From assembly GCA_021324655.1 (NCBI GenBank), contig JAJPIP010000007.1:1-35202 (forward strand): a DNA stretch of 35,202 nt. The letters are read 5' to 3'. A program made the translations under genes and the position numbers. Positions 779-13,644 of this stretch are shown piece after piece. Source of the stretch: Pseudomonadota bacterium (GTDB lineage Bacteria > Chloroflexota > UBA5177). The notes beneath the pieces are model-generated. The model made no database searches, was not told the DNA's origin, and saw only the letters and a list, made by a program, of their open reading frames with translations. Positions within the stretch are counted from its first letter, which is position 1, and every line of letters starts with the position of its first letter.

Positions 779-3700
779 ATGTCTTTCCCCACCGATCACG
801 ATCCGTTCATGACGGAAGAGATCGCCGTTGGGCCGGATGTCGAGGGACGGGTCCGCACCTTCCTCTTCGCCGACGTACGCGGGTACACGCAGTTCACGGT
901 GGAGTACGGCGACGCGGCAGCCGCCCGACTCATCGAGCGCTTCGTGGATATCGTGCGCAACGTCGTCGCGCGACGTCGCGGGACCGTTCTCGAGGTGCGA
1001 GGAGATGAAATCCTGGCCTTCTTCGAGTCCTCCCGACAGGCGCTGCTGGCGGCCGCTGAAATTCAGGGCCGGCTCGCCGAGACTGGACAGGACAACCCGG
1101 CGCAGCGGATCAAGGTCGGCATCGGCCTCGATGCCGGCGAAGCCATCCCGGTTGAGGGAGGATATCGTGGCGCGGCCCTGAATCTGGCATCCCGCCTCTG
1201 TAGTCTGGCTGGGGCCGGCGAGGTTCTGGCATCGGAGACGGTAGCGCATCTCGCCCGCAAAGTGGATGGCCTCACCTACGAGGAGCGTGGACGCACTCAG
1301 CTCAAAGGATTCGCCGATCCGGTGATGGTGATGCAGGTCTTGCCGGAACTGGAGGAACAGACCGCCGACCCGGGCAGTCCGGCCGACGCGGACGAACCGG
1401 TTCAAGCCCCATTACCTATCGGTCGTTTCCTCGGTGCTCTCCCCGACGGCTCGCTGGTTGCGCGCGAAGACGAGATGCGGCGATTGCTTCGGATAGTAGA
1501 CGATGTCGTGGCGGGAAAGGGCCGCACGGTTTTTCTCTCCGGTGAGCCGGGTGCAGGCAAGACCCGCCTGGCGCAGGAAATCTCCCTGAACGTGCGCAAC
1601 CGGAACTTCTTCATCGCTGCCGGCCGCTGCTATGAACAGGAAAGCGCCGTCCCGTACTATCCCTTCCTCGACGCCATGGCAGCTGCCTATGCCCAGCTTC
1701 CGTCACCCATTCGGCGGGACGCAGGGCGCCGCTGGCCGTATCTGGGCGTGCTCTTGCCGGATGAAATCGACGTTCCGAGTGGGGCAGGAGACCGTGACGA
1801 GCAGCGCGTCCTGCGCACGGCAACCAGCTTCCTGGAAGCGATTGCACACCTCCGTCCGGTGGCTCTCCTCATCGACGACGTGCACTGGGCCGACGCCGCC
1901 AGCCTCAAGCTGCTGCAGCATCTCGCTCGACACACACGCAATCTGCCCGTACTCATCCTGGGTACCTATCGGGACACGGAGTTGGGCTCGCAGAACCTTC
2001 TGGAGAGTGCGCTGAGAGATCTCAATCGAGAAGGCCTGATGGAGCGGCTGGCGGTGCGGCGTCTTCCTCCGGAAGGAACGGTTGCCCTCGCCGCCGATGC
2101 CATCGGCCGCGAGAGCCTATCACCTGAATTCACGGAGCTCCTGCACGAGAGGACCGAAGGGAATCCGTACTTCATCCAGCAGGTGGTGCGCATGCTCATG
2201 GAGCGCGGGGACATTTACCGCCAGGATGGCGAGTGGACACGCCGCGCCATTGAGGAGATCGAGGTGCCGGAGAGCATCCGAAGCGTGGTGGACCAGCGCA
2301 TCGGCGGCTTGAGTACACCCGCGCAGGAGATCCTGCACGAGGCGAGTGTGCTGGGACAGAGCTTCCGGTTTGACGACCTCGAGGCGATGACGGAACGTCC
2401 AGAGGACGAACTGGATGGAGCTCTGGAGGAAGCCGATGAAGCCGGCCTCACGACGTCAAACGACGGAGAGCTCTACCGGTTCGACCACGCCCTGACGCGC
2501 CAGATTCTGTACGAATCGCTGTCACCGCGCCGGCGGCGGCGTCTCCATCTGGCTGCCGGGACAGCCCTGGAAAAAGCGCCGGAAAGGGAGAGGTCGCACC
2601 GCGTGCCGGAGCTTGCCTGGCACTTCCTCCACGCCGACGACGCGGAACGGGCGATTCGCTATGCCATCGAAGCCGGAGACCAGGCGGAGGCGGTGTTCGC
2701 GCACGGCGATGCGGAGCGGCAGTATCGCACTGCCCTGGAGCTCATCGTGGAGGAGGAGCAGACGGGGCAGCTTCACGCCGAGGTGTTGCTCAAGCTGGGA
2801 CGGGCGATTCGCCGCGGCGGCCGCTACGGCGAAGCGCTGCTGATCCTGGAGCGAGCCGCGGACGCGTTCGTCGCCCTGGCGGATCGCGAGGGCGAGGTGG
2901 ACGTGCTGGCGGAGATCGGCCGGGCCCATGCGGGACGCGGTACCGCCGACGAAGGAATCGACCGGGTGCGCCCGCTGCTGCGAGACCTCGAGCAATCCGG
3001 CCTCGAGACGGTACCAGCGCGCTGCACGGCCGCTCTGTACAGCGCGCTGGCGGCTCTCTACTTCGCCGGCGGACAGTGGCTGGATCTGGTCGCGGCGGCG
3101 GACGACGCGGCGCGTCTGGCAGCGGAGTCCGGCGACGATCGCCTGCTGGCCGAGGCGGAAAAGGAGCGCGGCCGCGCCCTCGCCCTGGTCGGCCGCGAGG
3201 CGGAAGCCGAGACAGCGGTCAGGACCGCGGCAGGGCTGGCCGAGAAACTCGGCTACCTCTCGGCACTGCAGGGAGCGTTCAACACCCTGGGTTACCTTCA
3301 GCGCCGGGCCGGCGAACTCCAGTCCGCCATTGCGTCATACCGCCGCGCGCTCGACGCCGCGGAACGACTCGGCGATCCCAGCATCATCGCCTTCGCCCGG
3401 TCCGTGCTGGGCCGTGCTCTCGTGGAGAGCGGCGAGTGGGAGGAGGCAGAGACACAATTCCGGGCCGGCCTCGCGGCTGCGGAGTCAGGCGGCGTCTCCT
3501 GGTACGCCACCTATCCCACGGGAGGGCTCGGCGTGCTGGATCTGCTTCGTGGGGAGCGTGAGCGCGGCATGCGCCTGCTACATGAAGCTCTGGAACTGGC
3601 CCAGCGCAATGAGGACGTCCAGGGACAGCTCTTTCACCACTACCTTGCCCAGCAAGAAGTGCTGGACGGCCGGCCGGAGGACGCGATCGCCCGTCTCCAG

Positions 3701-4129
3701 GGAATCGGGGAGAGGACGCGGAGCGCCGGTCGCGAGATCCACCACTGGGCGCTGGCCTGGGCCCACCTGGAGGCGGGAAATCTGCAGGAAGCAGCGGAAC
3801 TGGCGGGTGAGGCAGGTGAGCACGTCCTCTACGAAGGGCGCATCGAGATGCCGGACATGCGGCGCATCTCGGCGATGATCGCGGTCCGGCAAGGACATGA
3901 GCATGCCGCCGCCGGCCATCTGGAGGAAGGACTGGACCTGGCGCGCAGCATCGGCATGCCGTATCAGGAAGCGTTGCTCCTGCTCGAATACGGGCGGCTG
4001 CAGCGGGGATTCGGGAACCGCGAAGCCGCGCAGGAAGCGCTCAGCAATGCGGCAGCTATCTTCCAGCGCCTGAATGCCCGTCCTTACATTGAGCGATGCA
4101 ACGCGGAGTTGCAGACCGTCACGCGCTAG
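779..4129 (+). CDS. Class III nucleotide cyclase-AAA ATPase-TPR signalling protein
   Basis: A 1116-residue multidomain protein. Residues about 25-190 are a class III adenylate/guanylate cyclase domain: metal-binding Asp32 (FADVRGYT) and Asp76 (RGDEI), and the transition-state pair Asn135/Arg139 (NLASR). The residue that is Lys in adenylate cyclases, four before the second Asp, is Glu72, and the partner position before the N-R motif is Gly128. Nucleotide choice is therefore uncertain and could be GTP, or the domain may be inactive. Residues about 228-520 are an AAA_16-type ATPase with Walker A GEPGAGKT (near 255) and a Walker B-like LLIDDVHWAD (near 362). From about 610 to the end the protein is helical with TPR-like repeats (for example LGYLQRRAGELQSAIASYRRAL). 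The architecture resembles large cyclase/ATPase/TPR regulators of Actinobacteria and Chloroflexota, but no output HTH is present. The start is fixed by the leaderless promoter. Its stop overlaps the stop of the convergent NRPS gene. Confidence 0.9.
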   Translation: MSFPTDHDPFMTEEIAVGPDVEGRVRTFLFADVRGYTQFTVEYGDAAAARLIERFVDIVRNVVARRRGTVLEVRGDEILAFFESSRQALLAAAEIQGRLAETGQDNPAQRIKVGIGLDAGEAIPVEGGYRGAALNLASRLCSLAGAGEVLASETVAHLARKVDGLTYEERGRTQLKGFADPVMVMQVLPELEEQTADPGSPADADEPVQAPLPIGRFLGALPDGSLVAREDEMRRLLRIVDDVVAGKGRTVFLSGEPGAGKTRLAQEISLNVRNRNFFIAAGRCYEQESAVPYYPFLDAMAAAYAQLPSPIRRDAGRRWPYLGVLLPDEIDVPSGAGDRDEQRVLRTATSFLEAIAHLRPVALLIDDVHWADAASLKLLQHLARHTRNLPVLILGTYRDTELGSQNLLESALRDLNREGLMERLAVRRLPPEGTVALAADAIGRESLSPEFTELLHERTEGNPYFIQQVVRMLMERGDIYRQDGEWTRRAIEEIEVPESIRSVVDQRIGGLSTPAQEILHEASVLGQSFRFDDLEAMTERPEDELDGALEEADEAGLTTSNDGELYRFDHALTRQILYESLSPRRRRRLHLAAGTALEKAPERERSHRVPELAWHFLHADDAERAIRYAIEAGDQAEAVFAHGDAERQYRTALELIVEEEQTGQLHAEVLLKLGRAIRRGGRYGEALLILERAADAFVALADREGEVDVLAEIGRAHAGRGTADEGIDRVRPLLRDLEQSGLETVPARCTAALYSALAALYFAGGQWLDLVAAADDAARLAAESGDDRLLAEAEKERGRALALVGREAEAETAVRTAAGLAEKLGYLSALQGAFNTLGYLQRRAGELQSAIASYRRALDAAERLGDPSIIAFARSVLGRALVESGEWEEAETQFRAGLAAAESGGVSWYATYPTGGLGVLDLLRGERERGMRLLHEALELAQRNEDVQGQLFHHYLAQQEVLDGRPEDAIARLQGIGERTRSAGREIHHWALAWAHLEAGNLQEAAELAGEAGEHVLYEGRIEMPDMRRISAMIAVRQGHEHAAAGHLEEGLDLARSIGMPYQEALLLLEYGRLQRGFGNREAAQEALSNAAAIFQRLNARPYIERCNAELQTVTR

Positions 4130-7100
4130 CCGGCCACCTCTATCTGATCTCCGGTTTCCCTGCTCCGGATGCCATGCAGGATGGCCTCCAGAGCCAGGGC
4201 TGTGGAGATGACATGGGGATGGCGTAGCAGGGACATGTGATCGCCGGGAATCGGGTGCACGGTCACCGTATCAACGACGTTGTCCCATCCGCCGGTGGAA
4301 CGGTCGAGGCTATCCATCGTCAGGAGATAAGCGTGGCCCGCATATCTCTTCGGGCGGTAACGCAGGCCGGCAAGGAGACCCACGTACAGGGCGCGTATCA
4401 TCTGCCGCATGGTGGGAGGATGATGCAGAAGCAATCGGGAGCCGGTGGGAGCGAGGCTTTCGACTACGGTGCGACTCAGCCCCGAAGGGAGCGAGCCGGG
4501 CCGCACCCGAGTTTCCGGCGCTATACCCACGACCGCGCCACGGAGGCGGCTGTAGTCACGCGCATACGGGATCAACCCCGGAAGCGCGGAGCCCAGCAGG
4601 AAGTTCGCGGCCCGTATCGCGGCGTCGCGCCGACCGCGGCTCGGGGCCGGCGTATCGAGAACGATGAGAGCGCTCAGATCCTCACCATCGCTCTGGAGCT
4701 GCCGGGCCATCTCGTAGGCGGCCAATCCGCCGAATGACCAGCCGCCAAGGTAGTAGGGTCCGTGCGGCTGGACGCGGCGCACGGCCTGCAGGTAGTACGC
4801 GGCCAGAGATTCCACCGTTGGGTTCCGGCTGCTGAGCCATGCTCCCGGCTGCAAGCCATAAAGAGGCTGCGCCGGATCGAGGTGACGGGCCAGTTCGTAG
4901 TACGGGAAAACGGTGCCGAGGACGGGCGCGGCGCAGAAGAACGGCGGCCGTGAACCGAGGGGACGAATCGGCACCAGCGGACCATTGTGCAATGATGGCC
5001 CACTCCGCAACCGGCCGGCGAGCGCACGAAGGGTCGGGGCGTCGAAGACGTCGCACGGCTCGAGCTCAACGCCGAAGTGCACGGCGATTTGCTCCAGCAA
5101 TTCCACAGTCAGCAGTGAGTCACCGCCCAGAGCAAAGAAGTCGGCGGCGAGATGGCTCACGTCTTTGCCGAGCAGATCGGACCAGATGAGCGCCAGGATC
5201 TCCTCCACATCATCCGCAGGGCCGGGTAGTGACCCGGCCGGCGGAAGCTCCGCGAGGGCTACCCGATCGACCTTGCCGTTGGGCGTGAGCGGCAGAGCCG
5301 GCAGTTCGACATACTCGGTCGGGCACATCGCCGCCGGCAGCGTCCCGCTCACCTCCTCCTTCAGAGCTGCCAGGTCCAGGTCGTCTCCCTCGCGCACCAC
5401 CACGTACGCGGCGAGCGACGACCCCGCAGGCCGCTCAGGGGTAACGACGGCGGCTGCAGCGACAGCGGGATTGCGGCAGATAACCGCTTCGACTTCTCCC
5501 GGCTCGACCCGCACACCGCGGATCTGCACCTGATCGTCGGCGCGCCCGAGAAAGACGAGCCGGCCGTCGGGGAGACGGCGCGCGAGATCACCCGTGCGGT
5601 ACAGACGGTCCCCCGACCGCTCCGGGTGAGACACGAAGCGCTCACGTGTCAGGCCGGATTGATTCACGTAGCCAAGGGCAACGCCGGCACCGCCGATATA
5701 GATCTCACCGCGGGTACCGGTGGCGACAGGACGGCGGCCGGCGTCGAGGAGGTACACCTCGACGTTGTCGATGGGGCGGCCGATGGTGACGCCGGCGGCA
5801 TCCAGCGGCGAGACGAGACCCGACGTCGCCACCACCGCGCACTCGGCTGGACCGTAGTTATTGACGACGTCGAACGTGAGGCCCGACGGAGGAGGACAGT
5901 GGAGGACGTCGCCGCCGACGAGCATGGCACGCAGCCGGGTCTCGGGCCACGGCAGCACAAGCATCCGCTCGGCCAGCGGCGTCGGCAGGAAAGCCACGGT
6001 GATGCCCTCGGCGCGCAGCCATGCCTGCACCCGCCGAGGGTCCGCACGCATCCCATCGGGAACGACGTGGAGGGATGCGCCCGCCGCCAGATAGGGCCAG
6101 ATCTCCCAGACGGCGGCGTCAAAGGCCGGGGAGGCGAATTGACTCGCCCGGTCCGACGGCGAGACCGCGAAAGTGCGATTGTGCCAGGCGATCAGGTTGG
6201 TGACGGAGCGCTGCGCGATGGCTACACCTTTCGGTGCCCCGGTACTGCCCGAGGTGTAGACGATGTAGGCCGGCGAGTCAGGCCGCGTTCCGGCAGTGAC
6301 GTTCTCGTCGCTCCCCGCATCTCTTGCCTTCGTTATGTCGACGATGGGAAGCGCATCGGGAATGACGCTGCCTTGCCCGGCAGCAATCAGGGCAACGCGA
6401 GCATCGGAGTCGCGCAGCATGAATGCAATCCGCTCCGGTGGATGAACCGGATCGATCAGCAGCCAGGTCGCGCCGGCCTTGGCAATCGCCAGCACGCCGA
6501 TCACCATCTCCGGCGACCGCACGACCGCCAGCCCCACCACGGCGCCCGGTCCCGCGCCCGCGTCTCGGAGCTGCCGCGCCAGACCGTTTGCCCGGCGGTT
6601 GAGCTCGCCGTAGGTCATGTTGCCGACAGCAGGCGCCTGGGGCGCGCGGGCGGCCTGCGCCTCGAAGAGTTCGTGGGGGAGCCGATACGGCGGCAACCCC
6701 ATCGACGCTCGACTCTCGGAAACCGCCCTCGTATCATCCGCCTGGATGGACCCGGGCCGGCGGGAGCGCGACTCAGGACAGTGCGCCAGGGAGGACAACA
6801 CGGACTGTAGCTGCTGCGACAGGAAAAGCACATCACGCTCCGCGATGGCAGCACGGTGATAGATGAAACGAAGCGAGAGATCGGGGGCACGACGCACCGC
6901 CAGGTTGAGGGGGAAGTTGGAATCCTGCACGATGAGAGGACGCTCAACGTCAAGAACCCCCACTCGACCGGCGAGCCGATCGATGGCGGCGTTATCGAAG
7001 GACAACAGACTCTCGAAGAGGGGGATCTCGGGCGGGATGTTACCCCAGCGGCGGACGTCGGCGAGCGACGCATAGGCATACTGCCGGATATCGTGCAGCG

Positions 7101-8046
7101 AGGACTGCAGCTCAGCGGCGAGCGCCGCGGCGCTTAGTCCCAGGTGGCGACGCATGCGCACCGGCACCGAATTGACCGTTAGTCCAACCAGCGAGGGTGG
7201 AAGATGCGGCGCACCCACCGTCAGACCGAAGAGGATATCATCCGCACCGGTCACCCGGCCCAGCGCGATGCCCCAGGCGGCGGTGATGACGTTATTGAGG
7301 GTCGCCCCGGACCCGTGGGCAATCCGGCGAAGGGCAGGCACCACACCATCGGGAACCGTCGCCTCCAGCTCAACCGGCTCGCCCCACCCTCCTGGCGGGC
7401 CGGGAGTCTGGCTCGAGAGGGCGCCCGATCGCTCGATTCGTGCCAGGTACTGCCGCCAGAAGCATTCTGCCTGCACCGTGTTCTGGCCGCGGATTCGGTC
7501 GATGAACTCCCGAAAGGGTGCGGGCGGAGGAAGATTGGCGGGCGTTCCTTCGTGCATCTCCGTGTACAGGGCGTAGACCTCGCGGAGGACGATGGCCAGC
7601 GATCTCCCGTCGACGATGGCGTGGTGCGCGGTCCAGACGACGTGATGCTCGCCGGGACCCAGGCGAATGAGCGCGATCCGCATGAGCGGGGCATACTCCA
7701 GATCGAAGTTCCGGGCGCGGTTCTCATAGAGGAAGGATGCCAGCTGTTTTGGTGAGGACGGATGGGACGACCAGTCCTCGAACGCGACGTCGAGAGCGGC
7801 GTCGGGATGAACCACCTGGAGCGGCTCCTGTCCGCGCGGCCAGGCGAAGGAGGTGCGAAGGATCGGATGGCGCGCCACCACCCGCCGCCACGCCTCCGCG
7901 AAAGCGTTGACGTCGAGATTGCCGCGGATGCGCCAGTGGGCTTGTGCGCAATAGACATGCGGATCGGCGGCGTAGCGGGAGTGAAAGAGCATTCCCCGCT
8001 GCAGGGGAGACACGGAGTAGCTCTCAGCCACCGGCGGGTCGGTCAC
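4126..8046 (-). CDS. Single-module NRPS (C-A-T-TE), predicted to activate leucine
   Basis: From a GTG at 8046 this encodes 1306 residues. Condensation domain: residues about 8-430, with SPLQRGMLFH and the catalytic motif HHAIVDG (141-147). Adenylation domain: about 470-950, with TSGSTG (near 600), FDAAVWEIW, NNYGPAE (near 730), YRTGDL, GRADDQVQIRG and NGKVDR. Residues aligned by eye to the GrsA pocket give D-A-W-F-L-G-N-V-V-K, the published Leu code. Carrier domain: Ser in GGDSL (near 976). Thioesterase: GWSFGG (near 1104), Asp in VLDTPAP and His in GDHMSLL. The upstream open frame (to 8385) is antisense-free but low-quality and overlaps the patatin gene. GTG at 8046 gives a 4-bp GTGA overlap with the patatin stop, implying translational coupling. 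No second module or MbtH protein is visible, so the product may be an acyl- or aminoacyl-leucine or a leucine ester. The C-domain donor is unknown. Confidence 0.9.
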   Translation of the reverse strand: MTDPPVAESYSVSPLQRGMLFHSRYAADPHVYCAQAHWRIRGNLDVNAFAEAWRRVVARHPILRTSFAWPRGQEPLQVVHPDAALDVAFEDWSSHPSSPKQLASFLYENRARNFDLEYAPLMRIALIRLGPGEHHVVWTAHHAIVDGRSLAIVLREVYALYTEMHEGTPANLPPPAPFREFIDRIRGQNTVQAECFWRQYLARIERSGALSSQTPGPPGGWGEPVELEATVPDGVVPALRRIAHGSGATLNNVITAAWGIALGRVTGADDILFGLTVGAPHLPPSLVGLTVNSVPVRMRRHLGLSAAALAAELQSSLHDIRQYAYASLADVRRWGNIPPEIPLFESLLSFDNAAIDRLAGRVGVLDVERPLIVQDSNFPLNLAVRRAPDLSLRFIYHRAAIAERDVLFLSQQLQSVLSSLAHCPESRSRRPGSIQADDTRAVSESRASMGLPPYRLPHELFEAQAARAPQAPAVGNMTYGELNRRANGLARQLRDAGAGPGAVVGLAVVRSPEMVIGVLAIAKAGATWLLIDPVHPPERIAFMLRDSDARVALIAAGQGSVIPDALPIVDITKARDAGSDENVTAGTRPDSPAYIVYTSGSTGAPKGVAIAQRSVTNLIAWHNRTFAVSPSDRASQFASPAFDAAVWEIWPYLAAGASLHVVPDGMRADPRRVQAWLRAEGITVAFLPTPLAERMLVLPWPETRLRAMLVGGDVLHCPPPSGLTFDVVNNYGPAECAVVATSGLVSPLDAAGVTIGRPIDNVEVYLLDAGRRPVATGTRGEIYIGGAGVALGYVNQSGLTRERFVSHPERSGDRLYRTGDLARRLPDGRLVFLGRADDQVQIRGVRVEPGEVEAVICRNPAVAAAAVVTPERPAGSSLAAYVVVREGDDLDLAALKEEVSGTLPAAMCPTEYVELPALPLTPNGKVDRVALAELPPAGSLPGPADDVEEILALIWSDLLGKDVSHLAADFFALGGDSLLTVELLEQIAVHFGVELEPCDVFDAPTLRALAGRLRSGPSLHNGPLVPIRPLGSRPPFFCAAPVLGTVFPYYELARHLDPAQPLYGLQPGAWLSSRNPTVESLAAYYLQAVRRVQPHGPYYLGGWSFGGLAAYEMARQLQSDGEDLSALIVLDTPAPSRGRRDAAIRAANFLLGSALPGLIPYARDYSRLRGAVVGIAPETRVRPGSLPSGLSRTVVESLAPTGSRLLLHHPPTMRQMIRALYVGLLAGLRYRPKRYAGHAYLLTMDSLDRSTGGWDNVVDTVTVHPIPGDHMSLLRHPHVISTALALEAILHGIRSRETGDQIEVAG

Positions 8047-9116
8047 GCGGTGCCCGTTGCAACGCCGGAGGAGGACGGCAGCCACGACGATCGGTCGATC
8101 CAGTTCAGAGCCTTGCCGAGGTGGTACGTGTCTCCCTCCACGACGGCCTTGCCCTGAGCATCCGCCAGTGGGTTGCTGAGCTCCGCTGCCACTTGACGCT
8201 CCCACTGATGCATGCGGGACCCGTGTGAGAGGCCCGTCCTTCCAACCGGAATCGTGGTATTCGGGTTGAGACGGAAATACTGATCCTCCCCCAGCAGCAG
8301 ACGGCACTGCTCGCTGATCTCCTCGCCTGCGCTCTCCATGGCCAGCTCCAGGAGTGCGCCGGGGAGATGCGGGCGGAGGAGCCACTGCGACCAGCCCCAG
8401 GCGGCATTCTTGACCGGGAGATAATGCGGCGATTGACCTTCGCCCACGGAGAAGAGGGCGATGTCCTCCAGGAAACGGCGTGCGTGGCGTCCCCGCCGGC
8501 TTGCCTCGAGACGCGCGCGGAGCACGCGGCTGAGCACGAGCATGCTTGGATCGTTGGCGAAGAGGCCGCCGTCGACGTAGCCCTGATAGATAGGCCAGAC
8601 GATGGGTGCCGCGCCCGAGCGGAGGGCAATATCGACCGCTGGAGTGTCGAGGAACTCGTTCTTCGCGCGATCGGCCGGTTCGTTGCTGAGGGCCCGGGGC
8701 TGCCAGCGCCGTCCGCCCGGCGTCCCCTGGCCGCCGTCGAGCTGGACTGCAGCGACCATAACCTTCCGCGGCAGCTCACCCAGGCGCTTGTTTCCCAGCG
8801 CACGAATCAACGCGGCGCGCAGCTCTGCATGGGAGTACATTGAGCGCACACCCAGCAGTCCGCCGATCAGGTGCCGGGCGCGCGGGGAAAGGATGGGCGT
8901 CTCGAGCCAGAAATCAATTGCGCTCTCCAATCCCACCACAGGGTCGGGCTCCGACGCGATGATGATGGCGGAGAAGCCGCCGGCGGAGGTGCCGGCGAGG
9001 AGATCGGCGGCCGCCAGGAACCCCGGCCGCGCCTTCTCGATGCGGCGCAGCAGCAGGAGAGACATAAGGACGGCGATGCCGCCCCCGTCGATCGACAGGA
9101 TCCGATGCTCCGGCAT
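8043..9116 (-). CDS. Patatin-like phospholipase
   Basis: A 357-residue patatin/cPLA2-fold lipid acyl hydrolase. The N-terminal nucleotide-free beta strand carries DGGG (oxyanion hole, residues about 10-13), the nucleophile elbow is GTSAGG (Ser near 45), and the catalytic Asp is in YVDGGLFAND (near 180). The glycine-rich loop continues as IAVLMS rather than the usual GxRG form. No signal peptide or membrane segment is seen, so it is probably cytoplasmic or peripheral. The ATG at 9116 is chosen because AGGAGG lies 4-5 nt upstream and the conserved patatin N-terminus begins there; the longer open frame to 9818 is antisense to the aldolase-like gene. It is the first gene of a two-gene operon with the NRPS (GTGA overlap) and has its own promoter at 9149-9177. 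A role in supplying or trimming an acyl group for the NRPS product is an inference. Confidence 0.9.
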   Translation of the reverse strand: MPEHRILSIDGGGIAVLMSLLLLRRIEKARPGFLAAADLLAGTSAGGFSAIIIASEPDPVVGLESAIDFWLETPILSPRARHLIGGLLGVRSMYSHAELRAALIRALGNKRLGELPRKVMVAAVQLDGGQGTPGGRRWQPRALSNEPADRAKNEFLDTPAVDIALRSGAAPIVWPIYQGYVDGGLFANDPSMLVLSRVLRARLEASRRGRHARRFLEDIALFSVGEGQSPHYLPVKNAAWGWSQWLLRPHLPGALLELAMESAGEEISEQCRLLLGEDQYFRLNPNTTIPVGRTGLSHGSRMHQWERQVAAELSNPLADAQGKAVVEGDTYHLGKALNWIDRSSWLPSSSGVATGTA

Positions 9117-9148
9117 GCCTCCTCCTGTCCATCCGGCAGAATGCCACC

Positions 9149-9177
9149 AGCATACGGGGGAAGGTGACAAATGACAA
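9149..9177 (-). promoter_or_regulatory. Promoter of the patatin-NRPS operon
   Basis: On the minus strand TTGTCA (9177-9172), a 17-bp spacer and TATGCT (9154-9149) precede the ATG at 9116. The predicted transcript has a leader of about 25 nt that contains the AGGAGG ribosome-binding site. Confidence 0.55.
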
Positions 9178-9212: not shown

Positions 9213-10487
9213 ATGCGCGACCTTTCTCCCATCCTCGACGAGGTCATTGACTACCGCTACAAAGGATTTCCCACCGACAGCGGCACCGTCACGATCGGGA
9301 ACGTCGGCGAGCAGGGATGGAACCTGCTCTCCGGCGATCTCCTGCCGCCGGTTATGGCCCTCAAAGAGAGTGCCGTCGCCCACAACATTGCCCTCATGGC
9401 CGGGTACTGCCGGGAGAATGGACTGTCGCTGGCTCCCCACGCCAAGACGCCCATGGCGCCGCAGATCGTCGATGCGCAGCTGGACGCGGGAGCCTGGGCC
9501 GTGACCGTTGCCACCGTGCAGCAGGCCGCCGTGATGCGGGCCTTCGGCGTGACGCGCCTCCTGATCGCCAATGAGGTCGTCGATCGTTCCACCATCCGTT
9601 GGGTGGCCGGCGAGATGGAGCGTTGCCCGGAGGTGGAGATCATTTCTCTGGTCGACTCCCTTGCGGGCGTGTGCATCCTCAGCGAAGAGCTCACCGCGCG
9701 GCACGGCGGGCGCCCGTTGCCGGTGCTGGTAGAGCTGGGAACACCAGGGGGACGGGCCGGCTGCCGGAGCGAGGACGAAGCTCTGGCCCTGGCACGGGCG
9801 GTTCACCAATCGCCCCACCTCGCACTGGCCGGGATGGAGCTATACGAAGGGGTGGCGCGCGGCACGACGATCGAGGAGCGCCTGGCCGCCGTGGACGGCA
9901 TGCTCTGCACGCTCCGGACGGTCACCGACCGAGCGAGGCACGAGGGCCTCTTCGATGACGCTGGTGAGATTATCGTCAGCGCCGGCGGCAGCCTGTATTT
10001 CGACCGCGTCGCCGCGCTTCTCGGCGGTGACTGGGATCCACGGATCCGGGTCGTGGTGCGATCCGGTAGCTACTTCGCGCACGATGTCGACTCGTATCAG
10101 GAGTTCTCCCCGCTCGCCGATCGCGGCGGGGCGTCCGACCAGCTGCAGCCGGCCATGGAGCTCTGGAGCACGGTGCTCTCCGTTCCGGAGCCCGGGCGCG
10201 CCATCGCCGGGTTTGGGAAGCGGGATTCGTCCCACGACCTGTCACTACCTTTCCCGTTCGCGGTTTACCGGGAAGGTGAGATCATGCCGCTGTCCGGCGA
10301 GGTGACCGTCGAGGCGCTGAACGACCAGCACGCGTTTCTGCGGGTCGATCCTTCTGTGCAACTTTGCGTGGGCGATCTGCTCGGGTCCGGCATCTCCCAC
10401 CCCTGCACGGCGTTCGACAAGTGGCGGCTGCTCCCGCTGGTCGACGACGACTACAACGTCGTCGGCGCCATCAAGACATACTTCTAG
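9213..10487 (+). CDS. D-threonine aldolase / D-serine dehydratase-like PLP enzyme
   Basis: A 424-residue fold-type III PLP enzyme (alanine racemase N-terminal barrel). The PLP-binding Lys78 is in PHAKTP, followed by the barrel strands MELYEGVA and VSAGGS. The C-terminal D-serine dehydratase-like domain ends with SHPCTAFDKW; His396 and Cys398 are the expected metal ligands, next to GDLLGSG. These enzymes cleave or deaminate D-hydroxy amino acids (D-Thr, D-Ser, 3-hydroxyaspartate). The exact substrate is not readable from sequence. GGGAGG lies 3-4 nt before the ATG. The gene is divergent from the patatin-NRPS operon across 96 bp and ends 21 bp from the convergent ABC permease gene. A link to D-amino acids in the NRPS pathway is possible but unproven. 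Confidence 0.85.
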   Translation: MRDLSPILDEVIDYRYKGFPTDSGTVTIGNVGEQGWNLLSGDLLPPVMALKESAVAHNIALMAGYCRENGLSLAPHAKTPMAPQIVDAQLDAGAWAVTVATVQQAAVMRAFGVTRLLIANEVVDRSTIRWVAGEMERCPEVEIISLVDSLAGVCILSEELTARHGGRPLPVLVELGTPGGRAGCRSEDEALALARAVHQSPHLALAGMELYEGVARGTTIEERLAAVDGMLCTLRTVTDRARHEGLFDDAGEIIVSAGGSLYFDRVAALLGGDWDPRIRVVVRSGSYFAHDVDSYQEFSPLADRGGASDQLQPAMELWSTVLSVPEPGRAIAGFGKRDSSHDLSLPFPFAVYREGEIMPLSGEVTVEALNDQHAFLRVDPSVQLCVGDLLGSGISHPCTAFDKWRLLPLVDDDYNVVGAIKTYF

Positions 10488-10508
10488 AACGCGCGTCTCG
10501 AGTCCGGC

Positions 10509-11366
10509 TTATTTGATGCTGCCGGCGGTCAGACCGGCGACGAAGCGCTTCTGCATGAAGATGAAGATCAGCAGGACCGGGATACTGGCCAGGACCGAGC
10601 CTGCCATGACGATCGCCGGCTGACCCACGTTGCCCTCGTGGGAAACGACCGCCAGCCAGAGCTGGACGGTGAACAGATCCTGATTGCGCAGGAAGACCAG
10701 AGGATTGAGAAAGTCATTCCACGTCGACAGGAAGACGAAGATGGCGAGCGACGCCAGCGCGGGCTGGATCAAGGGCACGACAACGCGCCAGTAGATCATG
10801 AACTCCCCGGCACCGTCGATCCGGGCGGCATCGAGTAGTTCGCTGGGGATCGACTGACAGTATTGACGCATCCAGAAGATGCCGAAGGCGTTGGCGATGC
10901 CGGGAATGATGAGCGGCCAGTACGTGTCGATCCAGCCCAGATGCGCCATGATGATGTAATTCGGAATGATCGTCACCATGTAGGGAATCATCATCGTGGC
11001 CAGCATGGCGGTAAAGAGAACGTCTTTGCCGCGGAAAGTCAATTTAGCGAAGGTGTAACCGGCCAGCGAGGAGAAGAAGACCTGCAAGACGACCGACACG
11101 AATGCCAGAAAGGCACTGTTGAGCAGGCCGCGCCCAAATTCCGATCGCTGAAACAGCAGGACAAAGTCCTGCAGGGTGAGATGGCTGGGAATGACGGGAA
11201 TCGGAATCTGGTAGAACTCCGACTGCGGCCGGAGCGCGGAGATGATCATCCAGTAGAACGGCGCGAGAAACGCGGCCGCGAAGACACACAACCCCAGGTA
11301 GAGAAGGAGCCGCGCCGGCCACGAACGTGCAGCAAGGCTGCGGTGGGCCGTGTTGACACCAATCAT
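10509..11366 (-). CDS. Sugar ABC transporter permease (MalG family)
   Basis: A 285-residue integral membrane protein with about six transmembrane helices. It has the EAA-type cytoplasmic loop (SELLDAARIDGAGEFMIYWRVVVPL) that docks the ATPase, and ends with a family-typical tail (FVAGLTAGSIK). It pairs with the upstream MalF-like permease and the binding protein to import a carbohydrate. The ATG at 11366 is preferred: AAGGAG lies 7 nt upstream and the longer open frame runs back into the preceding gene. The stop of the upstream permease is 13 bp before this start, so the two are one transcript. No ATPase gene is in the window, so a shared MsmX-like ATPase encoded elsewhere is expected. Confidence 0.92.
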   Translation of the reverse strand: MIGVNTAHRSLAARSWPARLLLYLGLCVFAAAFLAPFYWMIISALRPQSEFYQIPIPVIPSHLTLQDFVLLFQRSEFGRGLLNSAFLAFVSVVLQVFFSSLAGYTFAKLTFRGKDVLFTAMLATMMIPYMVTIIPNYIIMAHLGWIDTYWPLIIPGIANAFGIFWMRQYCQSIPSELLDAARIDGAGEFMIYWRVVVPLIQPALASLAIFVFLSTWNDFLNPLVFLRNQDLFTVQLWLAVVSHEGNVGQPAIVMAGSVLASIPVLLIFIFMQKRFVAGLTAGSIK

Positions 11367-11379
11367 TTCATCGCTCCTT

Positions 11380-12315
11380 CTAGTCCACCGGTTTATTGCC
11401 CAGCTTGAGCTGCAGCATGGACAGGACAAAAATGATGAAGGCGACCACCCAGGCGATAGCCGCACCATAGCCAAAATTGAAGAAGACGAACGAGTTCTGG
11501 TAGATCAACGTCCCGGTCACCAGCCCGGCGTTCTGAGTGCCACCGATATTCCCCGCGCTGCCGCCGAACAGCACGTACGGCTCCTCAAAGAGATTGAACG
11601 CCCCGATCGTCGAGATGATGAAGTCGAACAGGATGATCGGACGCATCAGGGGGACGGTGATTCGCCAGAACGCCTGTCTACCCGTCGCCCCATCCACCGT
11701 CGCCGCTTCGTAGATGTCGCCCGGGATGCTCTGCAGCCCGGCCAGCATGATCACCATGTCATTCCCGGTCCAGCGCCAGAGGAGCGCCATGATGAGGGTC
11801 GGCTTCATCCAATTCGGATCGGAGAGGAAGTTGATCGGGGCGATGCCGACGGCGTGCAAGGCATCGTTGACGAGGCCGATGGAGGGGTCGAAGAGCACGC
11901 TGAAGATCAGGCCGGTGACCACCAACGATGTCACCACGGGTAAGAAGTAGACGGTGCGGAAAAACCCGCGGAGCCGCAGACGCTGCGCGTTGAGCACGGC
12001 GGCGAAGGCGAGCGCCAGGAAAACCATGGGGACGGTGCTTCCCAGCCAGACGATCACGGTATTGCCGAGCGCGGTAAGGAAGTCCGGATCCGTCAGCAGG
12101 ACACCGTAATTGCTCAGGCCGGTGAACTGCGCCTGCGCGACACCCTGCCAGTTGAAGAGGCTCACGCCCAGGGAGAACAGGATCGGCAGCAACCCGAAGG
12201 CCAGGAAGAGGAGATAGAACGGCGAGATGAAGACGTAAGGGGCGACCTTCGCCCACCACCGCGCCGCGCCGCGAGGACTGCGGGTGATCGATCCTGCCCG
12301 GGCTACTAGGGCCAT
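11380..12315 (-). CDS. Sugar ABC transporter permease (MalF family)
   Basis: A 311-residue membrane protein with an N-terminal cytoplasmic tail and about six transmembrane helices (the first is FISPFYLLFLAFGLLPILF). It has the EAA loop (YEAATVDGATGRQAFWRITVPLMRP) typical of carbohydrate uptake permeases. GGGAGG lies 5 nt before the ATG. It sits between the binding-protein gene (27 bp upstream) and the MalG-type permease (13 bp downstream) in a single minus-strand operon. Confidence 0.92.
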   Translation of the reverse strand: MALVARAGSITRSPRGAARWWAKVAPYVFISPFYLLFLAFGLLPILFSLGVSLFNWQGVAQAQFTGLSNYGVLLTDPDFLTALGNTVIVWLGSTVPMVFLALAFAAVLNAQRLRLRGFFRTVYFLPVVTSLVVTGLIFSVLFDPSIGLVNDALHAVGIAPINFLSDPNWMKPTLIMALLWRWTGNDMVIMLAGLQSIPGDIYEAATVDGATGRQAFWRITVPLMRPIILFDFIISTIGAFNLFEEPYVLFGGSAGNIGGTQNAGLVTGTLIYQNSFVFFNFGYGAAIAWVVAFIIFVLSMLQLKLGNKPVD

Positions 12316-12342
12316 GGTGTCCTCCCTGGTCTCCCCTCTCCT

Positions 12343-13644
12343 TTATGAGAGGTGGAGCTTGGAGCGCAGCTCGGATGCCGCCGTCTTCATCCCGACTGCC
12401 GGCGTCACCTTGCCGGTGAGAATGTCGGTGAGGTGCGTGGAGACGATCGACTGTGCCTGCAAGAAGCCCTTGCCGAAGGCAATCGGCGGGCAATCGTGGG
12501 CGATGGCATTCCACACCTCGACAACCTTCTGACCGCCGAAGAAAGGATCCGGCTTTGCCTTGAGTTCATCGAAGAACGGCGCCCACGCGGGTAGAACGTG
12601 ATCGACCGCGTAGAGGTGCCGCGCGCCGACGCCGGTCAACCCCATCACTTCCAGCTCCCAGGCCAGCGACTTCATGTTGCTCTGATTGGGTACGACGAAC
12701 ACGGTGGGGTATTGATAGCCGGCCCGACGTCCGCCCCTGGTGACCGCGGGAACGCGGGTCAGGCGCCACTTACCGGCCTGCTCCGGCATGTTCTGGACGA
12801 GGGTCTGCGGGTACCACCCGGGAGACACGATGCAGGTTGCGATCGTTCCCTTCTTGAGCAGTGCCGTCATCGCGTTGCCCGAGTAGCCGCCACTCGGGTT
12901 CTGCAAGACTCCGGGCGCATCCCACAGCCGCTTGAGGGCCGTCACCGCGTCGATGATCGCCGGTTGGTCGACGATAACCTTGCGGTCCTGCGTGTCGAAG
13001 TAGAAACCGCCGAAGCCCTGCTCCACGGCCAGGATCTCGTATGCGGCGGTGTCGTTGTCGTTCAGGGCATACAGGTGAACCTTGCCGCCGCTCGCGCTCT
13101 GCATCTTCGCACTGGCGGCCGCCAGGTCGTCCCAGGTCTCGATCGTATCCGCGTTCAAGCCGTACTGATCCCAGAGATCCTTGCGATAGAGCATGCCCAT
13201 GGGCTCCGAGTCGGTCACGAGCCCGTAGAAGTTGCCGCGATACGAGGACAGGGAAATGGTCGGCGGGACGAACTGACTCTGATACTGACTCAGATGCGCG
13301 TTCATCGGCGCCAGACCCTCGACGTATGACGCCAGACGGGAGTCATCGATCGAGGCGAGGTCCGGGGCGCCCGTCCCGGAAAGGATCGCGCTCAGCAGAT
13401 TGGCGTGGATATCGTCGTAGCTGAAGAGGCGAAGCTTGACGTTGACCTTCGGATACTTCTTCTCGAAGGCTTTGATCTGATTCTGGACACCTTCAATGGC
13501 ACCGGTGAAGCCCCAGACGGTCAGCGTGCCGCTCGCCGAGCTGCTACCACCACCGCTGCTTCCGCAACCGGCGAGTGGCCCCAGGGCCACGCCCGCCGCC
13601 GCCGCGCCTGTCAGTTGCAAGAACTCGCGCCGGTTGATACGCAT
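12343..13644 (-). CDS. Sugar-binding lipoprotein of the ABC transporter
   Basis: A 433-residue family 1 extracellular solute-binding protein. The N-terminus has a twin-arginine-type signal (NRREFLQLTG) and a lipobox LAGC with Cys27 as the lipid-modified residue, followed by a Gly/Ser linker. The mature part begins TLTVWGFTGA and has the expected IKAFEKKYPKVNVKL strand-helix. It should be anchored outside the membrane and deliver a sugar or sugar derivative to the two permeases. GGAGG runs upstream of the ATG. It follows the enolase-superfamily gene in the same direction after 136 bp. That gap could hold its own promoter or an mRNA-processing site, but no convincing -35/-10 pair is visible. 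Confidence 0.93.
   Translation of the reverse strand: MRINRREFLQLTGAAAAGVALGPLAGCGSSGGGSSSASGTLTVWGFTGAIEGVQNQIKAFEKKYPKVNVKLRLFSYDDIHANLLSAILSGTGAPDLASIDDSRLASYVEGLAPMNAHLSQYQSQFVPPTISLSSYRGNFYGLVTDSEPMGMLYRKDLWDQYGLNADTIETWDDLAAASAKMQSASGGKVHLYALNDNDTAAYEILAVEQGFGGFYFDTQDRKVIVDQPAIIDAVTALKRLWDAPGVLQNPSGGYSGNAMTALLKKGTIATCIVSPGWYPQTLVQNMPEQAGKWRLTRVPAVTRGGRRAGYQYPTVFVVPNQSNMKSLAWELEVMGLTGVGARHLYAVDHVLPAWAPFFDELKAKPDPFFGGQKVVEVWNAIAHDCPPIAFGKGFLQAQSIVSTHLTDILTGKVTPAVGMKTAASELRSKLHLS

What the first reader, a model, noticed from the sequence alone, without database searches (positions are those of the whole stretch)
4126..9116. Patatin lipase and NRPS translated as a coupled pair: possible lipo-amino acid system
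The patatin stop and NRPS start share GTGA, and one promoter (TTGTCA-17-TATGCT) serves both. A cytoplasmic phospholipase fused by translation to a single-module Leu-NRPS is not an arrangement I know. The lipase may free an acyl chain from membrane lipid for condensation with leucine, or process the product.
Basis: inference. Interest (0 to 1): 0.65.

Follow-up and report, generated by a model that had tools for sequence, protein, structure and literature searches.

The report
Patatin-like enzyme paired with Leu NRPS
A Chloroflexota bacterium makes, from two overlapping genes, a modified patatin-type (lipase-like) enzyme and a one-module peptide synthetase predicted to use leucine; the same pairing recurs in a sister genus and in myxobacteria, so the lipase-like protein is probably a working partner of such synthetases rather than an ordinary phospholipase.

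Summary
A patatin-like protein (8043-9116, -) and a C-A-T-TE NRPS (4126-8046, -) overlap by GTGA behind one promoter-like site. The pair is not a one-off: a sister genus has patatin (53% identity) and a C domain joined by the same GTGA. In Myxococcota, relatives of this patatin sit beside NRPS/PKS genes more often than other patatins of the same genomes (8/16 against 2/48 within 15 kb of a C domain, p=1e-4, distance chosen afterwards), with near-zero-gap junctions in two genomes. The subfamily keeps the Ser/Asp dyad but has lost the [R/K]-G of GGGx[R/K]G, so 'phospholipase' is doubtful. The A domain carries the Leu code DAWFLGNVVK. The C domain belongs to the DCL lineage, not the starter type, and the only other carrier protein found in this 96%-complete genome looks like the fatty-acid ACP. 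An N-acyl-leucine-type product is plausible but unshown. Only an AcpS-type PPTase was found, which leaves NRPS activity in doubt. Best reading: a two-gene biosynthetic operon in which a divergent patatin-fold acyl hydrolase/transferase serves the NRPS. Patatin-like genes in NRPS clusters have been reported before; the recurrent divergent subfamily in two phyla appears to be new.

The parts
8043..9116 (-). Patatin-like protein, 357 aa; nucleophile Ser44 (GTSAG), Asp182 (DGG), glycine loop DGGGIAV without the [R/K]G of patatins
4126..8046 (-). Single-module NRPS C-A-T-TE, 1306 aa, GTG start
8043..8046 (-). GTGA overlap: patatin stop / NRPS start; same GTGA in sister genus G003
6739..8028 (-). 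Condensation domain, HHAIVDG intact, DCL lineage
5272..6666 (-). Adenylation domain (with C-terminal subdomain), code DAWFLGNVVK (Leu)
5008..5196 (-). Thiolation (PCP) domain, LGGDS
4201..4944 (-). Thioesterase domain, GWSFGG and GDHMS
9149..9177 (-). Promoter-like site TTGTCA-17-TATGCT
   Evidence: consensus match only
9118..9126 (-). Shine-Dalgarno-like AGGAGGAGG before the patatin ATG

Best explanation
This is a two-gene biosynthetic operon. The NRPS activates L-leucine on its own carrier domain, its C domain joins the Leu nitrogen to an acyl (or peptidyl) donor, most likely taken from the fatty-acid ACP or CoA because no other NRPS carrier was found, and its TE releases the product. The patatin-fold protein, made from the same mRNA in a coupled way, is a Ser-Asp acyl hydrolase/acyltransferase dedicated to that product: it handles an acyl ester or thioester (supply, transfer, trimming or editing) and is not a general phospholipase. 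Shown here: gene structure, domain content, conserved junction, recurrent NRPS/PKS association, catalytic dyad kept, R/K-G lost. Inferred: shared mRNA and coupling, donor identity, product, and the chemical step of the patatin.
For: Overlapping junction conserved in another genus. Patatin relatives lie within 15 kb of C domains in 8 of 16 cases against 2 of 48 other patatins in the same genomes (p=3e-4 after collapsing tandem copies). Further direct junctions: G566 patatin then A-T-C NRPS with a 3-bp gap; G755 C-T-TE then patatin by ATGA. NRPS/PKS-linked copies all fall on the divergent side of the patatin tree (94/90). Ser and Asp conserved. One C domain and two carrier domains in the whole genome.
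Against: Only an AcpS-type PPTase was found, so the T domain may stay unmodified. DCL-lineage C domains normally take D-aminoacyl donors, and no E domain or second module was found to make one. The pair is found in only 2 of 400 Chloroflexota genomes. In the myxobacterial PKS loci the patatin is often convergent rather than co-transcribed. At 5 and 10 kb the C-domain enrichment is not significant. No biochemistry exists.
Confidence: 0.45

Rival explanations
1. One reading: the patatin is a phospholipase that frees a fatty acid from membrane lipid, which is then activated and condensed with Leu to give a lipo-amino acid.
For: Patatin fold with Ser-Asp dyad and best fold match to CapV-type lipases; no NRPS donor carrier found in the genome; the authors of the puwainaphycin paper note that the patatin family can cleave acyl chains from membrane lipid, while leaving the role of their orf2 open (PMC4219810).
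Against: Loss of the phosphate-contacting [R/K]-G; a free fatty acid would still need an acyl-CoA/ACP ligase, and none lies in the operon; the C domain is not starter type.
Confidence: 0.2
2. The pair is an operon of convenience, or the NRPS is inactive for lack of a suitable PPTase; co-occurrence reflects shared mobility of accessory genes.
For: Only AcpS found; pair absent from three other genomes of the family; no shared flanking genes with G003 among those tested.
Against: All catalytic motifs intact in C, A, T, TE and patatin dyad; identical GTGA junction at 53% protein identity; recurrent association in a second phylum.
Confidence: 0.2
3. The patatin is a CBASS/Pycsar-like membrane-degrading effector, switched by a nucleotide signal or by the NRPS product, acting in defence or self-limitation.
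For: Closest characterised relatives are CapV/CapE effectors; cyclase/AAA_16 signalling genes lie near it in the window and near several relatives.
Against: Far below the CBASS lipase cut-off (85.9 against 200 bits); none of the window proteins scanned is a CD-NTase; lost [R/K]-G; the true CBASS patatin of the phylum (G251) falls in the other, canonical branch.
Confidence: 0.1

Closest known systems
CBASS phospholipase effectors CapV/CapE (NF041079, PDLC00757)
   Same: Patatin fold, Ser-Asp dyad, similar length; best PDB matches by sequence and fold
   Different: Below family cut-off, no CD-NTase beside it, lacks the [R/K]-G motif, paired with an NRPS
Puwainaphycin cluster orf2 (PMC4219810)
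   Same: Patatin-like gene in a lipopeptide NRPS cluster; role left open by the authors
   Different: Large FAAL-PKS-NRPS assembly; sequence not compared here
NRPS cassettes of Rhodoferax bin 43 and related Betaproteobacteria (PMC10681181)
   Same: Patatin-like gene associated with NRPS in several genera
   Different: Includes a SNARE-associated-domain gene; sequence and motif not compared here
EntF-type terminal module (C-A-T-TE)
   Same: Same domain order on one protein
   Different: EntF works with a separate aryl-carrier partner (general knowledge); none found here
oaa fatty-acid-amide system (PMC13142362)
   Same: A C domain using acyl-ACP donors, the donor class proposed here
   Different: Stand-alone starter-related C domain acting on free amines; here a DCL-lineage C in a full Leu module with TE

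Membership tests
Patatin-like proteins (PF01734) | Profile match over gathering score | tested here: met
   63.7 against 27.7 bits
Patatin-like proteins (PF01734) | Ser (GxSxG) and Asp (DGG/A) dyad | tested here: met
   GTSAG Ser44, DGG Asp182, invariant in the 14-row alignment
Patatin phospholipases | Oxyanion/phosphate motif GGGx[R/K]G | tested here: not met
   GGGIAV here, GGGVNV in G003, mostly GGPxxx or GMSAAx-type in myxobacterial kin
CBASS cGAMP-activated phospholipase (NF041079) | Curated score cut-off 200 bits | tested here: not met
   85.9 bits
CBASS | CD-NTase in the same operon | tested here: not met
   No CD-NTase among window proteins scanned; the operon holds two genes
Lipo-initiation (starter) C domain | Groups with starter C domains | tested here: not met
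   Groups with C domains that follow E domains, 100/100. No verified starter domain was in the tree; the CDA peptide synthetase I chains score only 34 bits
NRPS module (C-A-T-TE) | All domains with core motifs | tested here: met
Functional NRPS | Sfp-type PPTase in genome | tested here: not met
   Only an AcpS-like match; genome 96% complete
N-acyl amino acid synthase | Product is an N-acyl amino acid | not testable with these tools
   needs expression and LC-MS

The most novel reading that the evidence does not exclude
The divergent patatins are trans-acting acyltransferases of NRPS/PKS assembly lines: a Ser-Asp acyl-enzyme, built on the fold class shared by patatins and malonyl-CoA:ACP transacylases, moves an acyl group onto (or off) the carrier-bound intermediate, replacing an acyl-CoA ligase or starter C domain.
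Probability: 0.15. Interest if true: 0.75.

Novelty: new variant of a known kind. Interest (0 to 1): 0.48.

Why it matters
If the divergent patatins are enzymes of NRPS/PKS pathways, they are a class of biosynthetic accessory protein now annotated as phospholipases or defence effectors. They would also be a handle for mining lipopeptide-like products in Chloroflexota and myxobacteria. The Chloroflexota pair is a minimal two-gene case in which the role of the patatin could be tested directly.

Tried and rejected
CBASS membership: score far below cut-off, no CD-NTase. Starter-C reading: rejected by the C-domain tree, with the limit that no verified starter domain was in it. FabD/trans-AT fold homology: Foldseek gives patatins/CapV first and AT domains only at E about 0.1, so only a distant fold relation. 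Plasmid records: best patatin matches are mostly annotated CBASS; the Burkholderia hit has no NRPS neighbour. Wider Chloroflexota scan with the 14-row profile: further hits of canonical or near-canonical motif without NRPS/PKS neighbours. Horizontal transfer by base composition: the pair has the GC and GC3 of its neighbours. Paper searches gave two precedents and no functional study of a patatin in an NRPS pathway.

Full report
WHAT IS THERE. On the minus strand a patatin-like gene (8043-9116, 357 aa) is followed by a 1306-aa C-A-T-TE NRPS gene (4126-8046). The patatin stop and NRPS start share GTGA. A promoter-like TTGTCA-17-TATGCT and a strong AGGAGG precede the patatin; no comparable ribosome site precedes the NRPS GTG. 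The operon ends there: the downstream gene (779-4129, +) is convergent and the upstream gene (9213-10487, +) is divergent.

NRPS. All core motifs are intact: C HHAIVDG, A3, A7 and A10, T LGGDS, TE GWSFGG and GDHMS. The A-domain code read by GrsA numbering is DAWFLGNVVK, a frequent Leu code (PMC12283262, PMC7524897). It is the only Condensation domain found in the 3.8-Mb, 96%-complete genome. The only other carrier domain found is in a 96-aa frame on contig C14, presumably the fatty-acid ACP. To type the C domain I built a tree with C domains whose neighbours define them: those that follow an E domain, and those that do not. The window C domain and the G003 C domain join the E-following (DCL) group at 100/100 and share its LSPxQxGMLFH motif. 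PDB matches agree: McyB, PvdL, TycB and SrfA-C score 147-232 bits and the CDA peptide synthetase I chains 34 bits. So the module has a DCL-lineage C domain but no upstream module or E domain was found. By exclusion the donor is an acyl-ACP/CoA or a soluble compound. This is inference.

PATATIN. Closest solved relatives by sequence and by fold are CapV-type CBASS lipases (AlphaFold model pLDDT 73.7, pTM 0.79). It is far below the CBASS-lipase cut-off. Ser44 and Asp182 are kept. The GGGx[R/K]G motif reads GGGIAV here and GGGVNV in G003; myxobacterial kin mostly read GGPxxx or GMSAAx. In cPLA2/iPLA2 an Arg or Lys stabilises the lipid phosphate (PMC9862071), so phospholipid is not an obvious substrate.

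CONSERVATION. In the sister genus G003 (contig JANWJD010000159.1, Chloroflexi MAG) a 53%-identical patatin is followed by a C domain (38% identity) with the identical GTGA junction; the contig ends in the A domain. No other flanking gene tested is shared. The other five genomes of the class lack the patatin. In 400 Chloroflexota genomes the remaining hits have canonical or near-canonical motifs and no NRPS/PKS neighbour was found; one is a real CBASS locus (G251).

SECOND PHYLUM. A profile of three patatins found relatives in 14 of 379 Myxococcota genomes. I listed all patatins and all C domains in those genomes. Among genomes with C domains, 8 of 16 profile hits and 2 of 48 other patatins lie within 15 kb of a C domain (p=1e-4); collapsing tandem copies gives 6/12 against 2/50 (p=3e-4). 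The distances were set after seeing the positions; at 5 and 10 kb the difference is not significant (p=0.15 and 0.26), so treat the p-value as descriptive. In five genomes (G455, G542, G543, G566, G648) a single C domain was found, and in three of them (G455, G542, G566) it lies near this patatin. Direct junctions: G566, patatin then A-T-C NRPS, 3-bp gap; G755, C-T-TE NRPS then patatin, ATGA overlap. In Byssovorax G400, G542, G492, G648 and G455 the neighbour is a related PKS ending in T-TE, so these count as one setting. All NRPS/PKS-linked copies fall on one side of a patatin tree, opposite the canonical and CBASS forms (94/90). Independent settings: the Chloroflexota pair, G566, G755 and the myxobacterial PKS family.

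HOW IT PROBABLY WORKS. NRPS loads Leu, the C domain attaches a donor to its nitrogen, the TE releases it; the patatin-fold enzyme handles an acyl ester or thioester in that process. Dependence of the product on the patatin is not shown. The main doubt is that only an AcpS-type PPTase was found.

KNOWN OR NEW. Patatin-like genes in NRPS clusters have been noted (puwainaphycin orf2, PMC4219810; Rhodoferax and related cassettes, PMC10681181) without a tested function. I found no description of this [R/K]G-less subfamily or its association across two phyla, but the library searched is open-access only.

Noticed in passing
window 779-4129 (+); L028, L067, L068, L078: A large AAA_16 signalling protein (with a cyclase domain in the window, L067 and L068; with a kinase domain in L028, L067 and L068) lies near the divergent patatin in 5 of about 17 loci; none was seen in about 24 control stretches by the same tblastn (the L093 hit is the L028 locus again). 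Since CapV-type patatins answer to cyclic nucleotides, regulation by a cyclase is a lead.
   Followed up: partly
window 9213-10487 (+): Divergent D-serine dehydratase/D-threonine aldolase-like gene starts 97 bp from the patatin; not conserved beside the G003 pair.
   Followed up: partly
L065 (G755) 10232-12970 (-): NRPS protein TubC_N-C-T-TE without A domain; its C domain has RDVALDG instead of HHxxxDG, so it is probably non-condensing, yet overlaps the patatin by ATGA.
   Followed up: partly
L066, L071: Two divergent patatin genes next to each other (back to back in L066, tandem in L071) beside the same kind of PKS.
   Followed up: partly
window 4126-4129: The convergent cyclase/AAA gene and the NRPS overlap tail to tail by 4 bp.
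   Followed up: no
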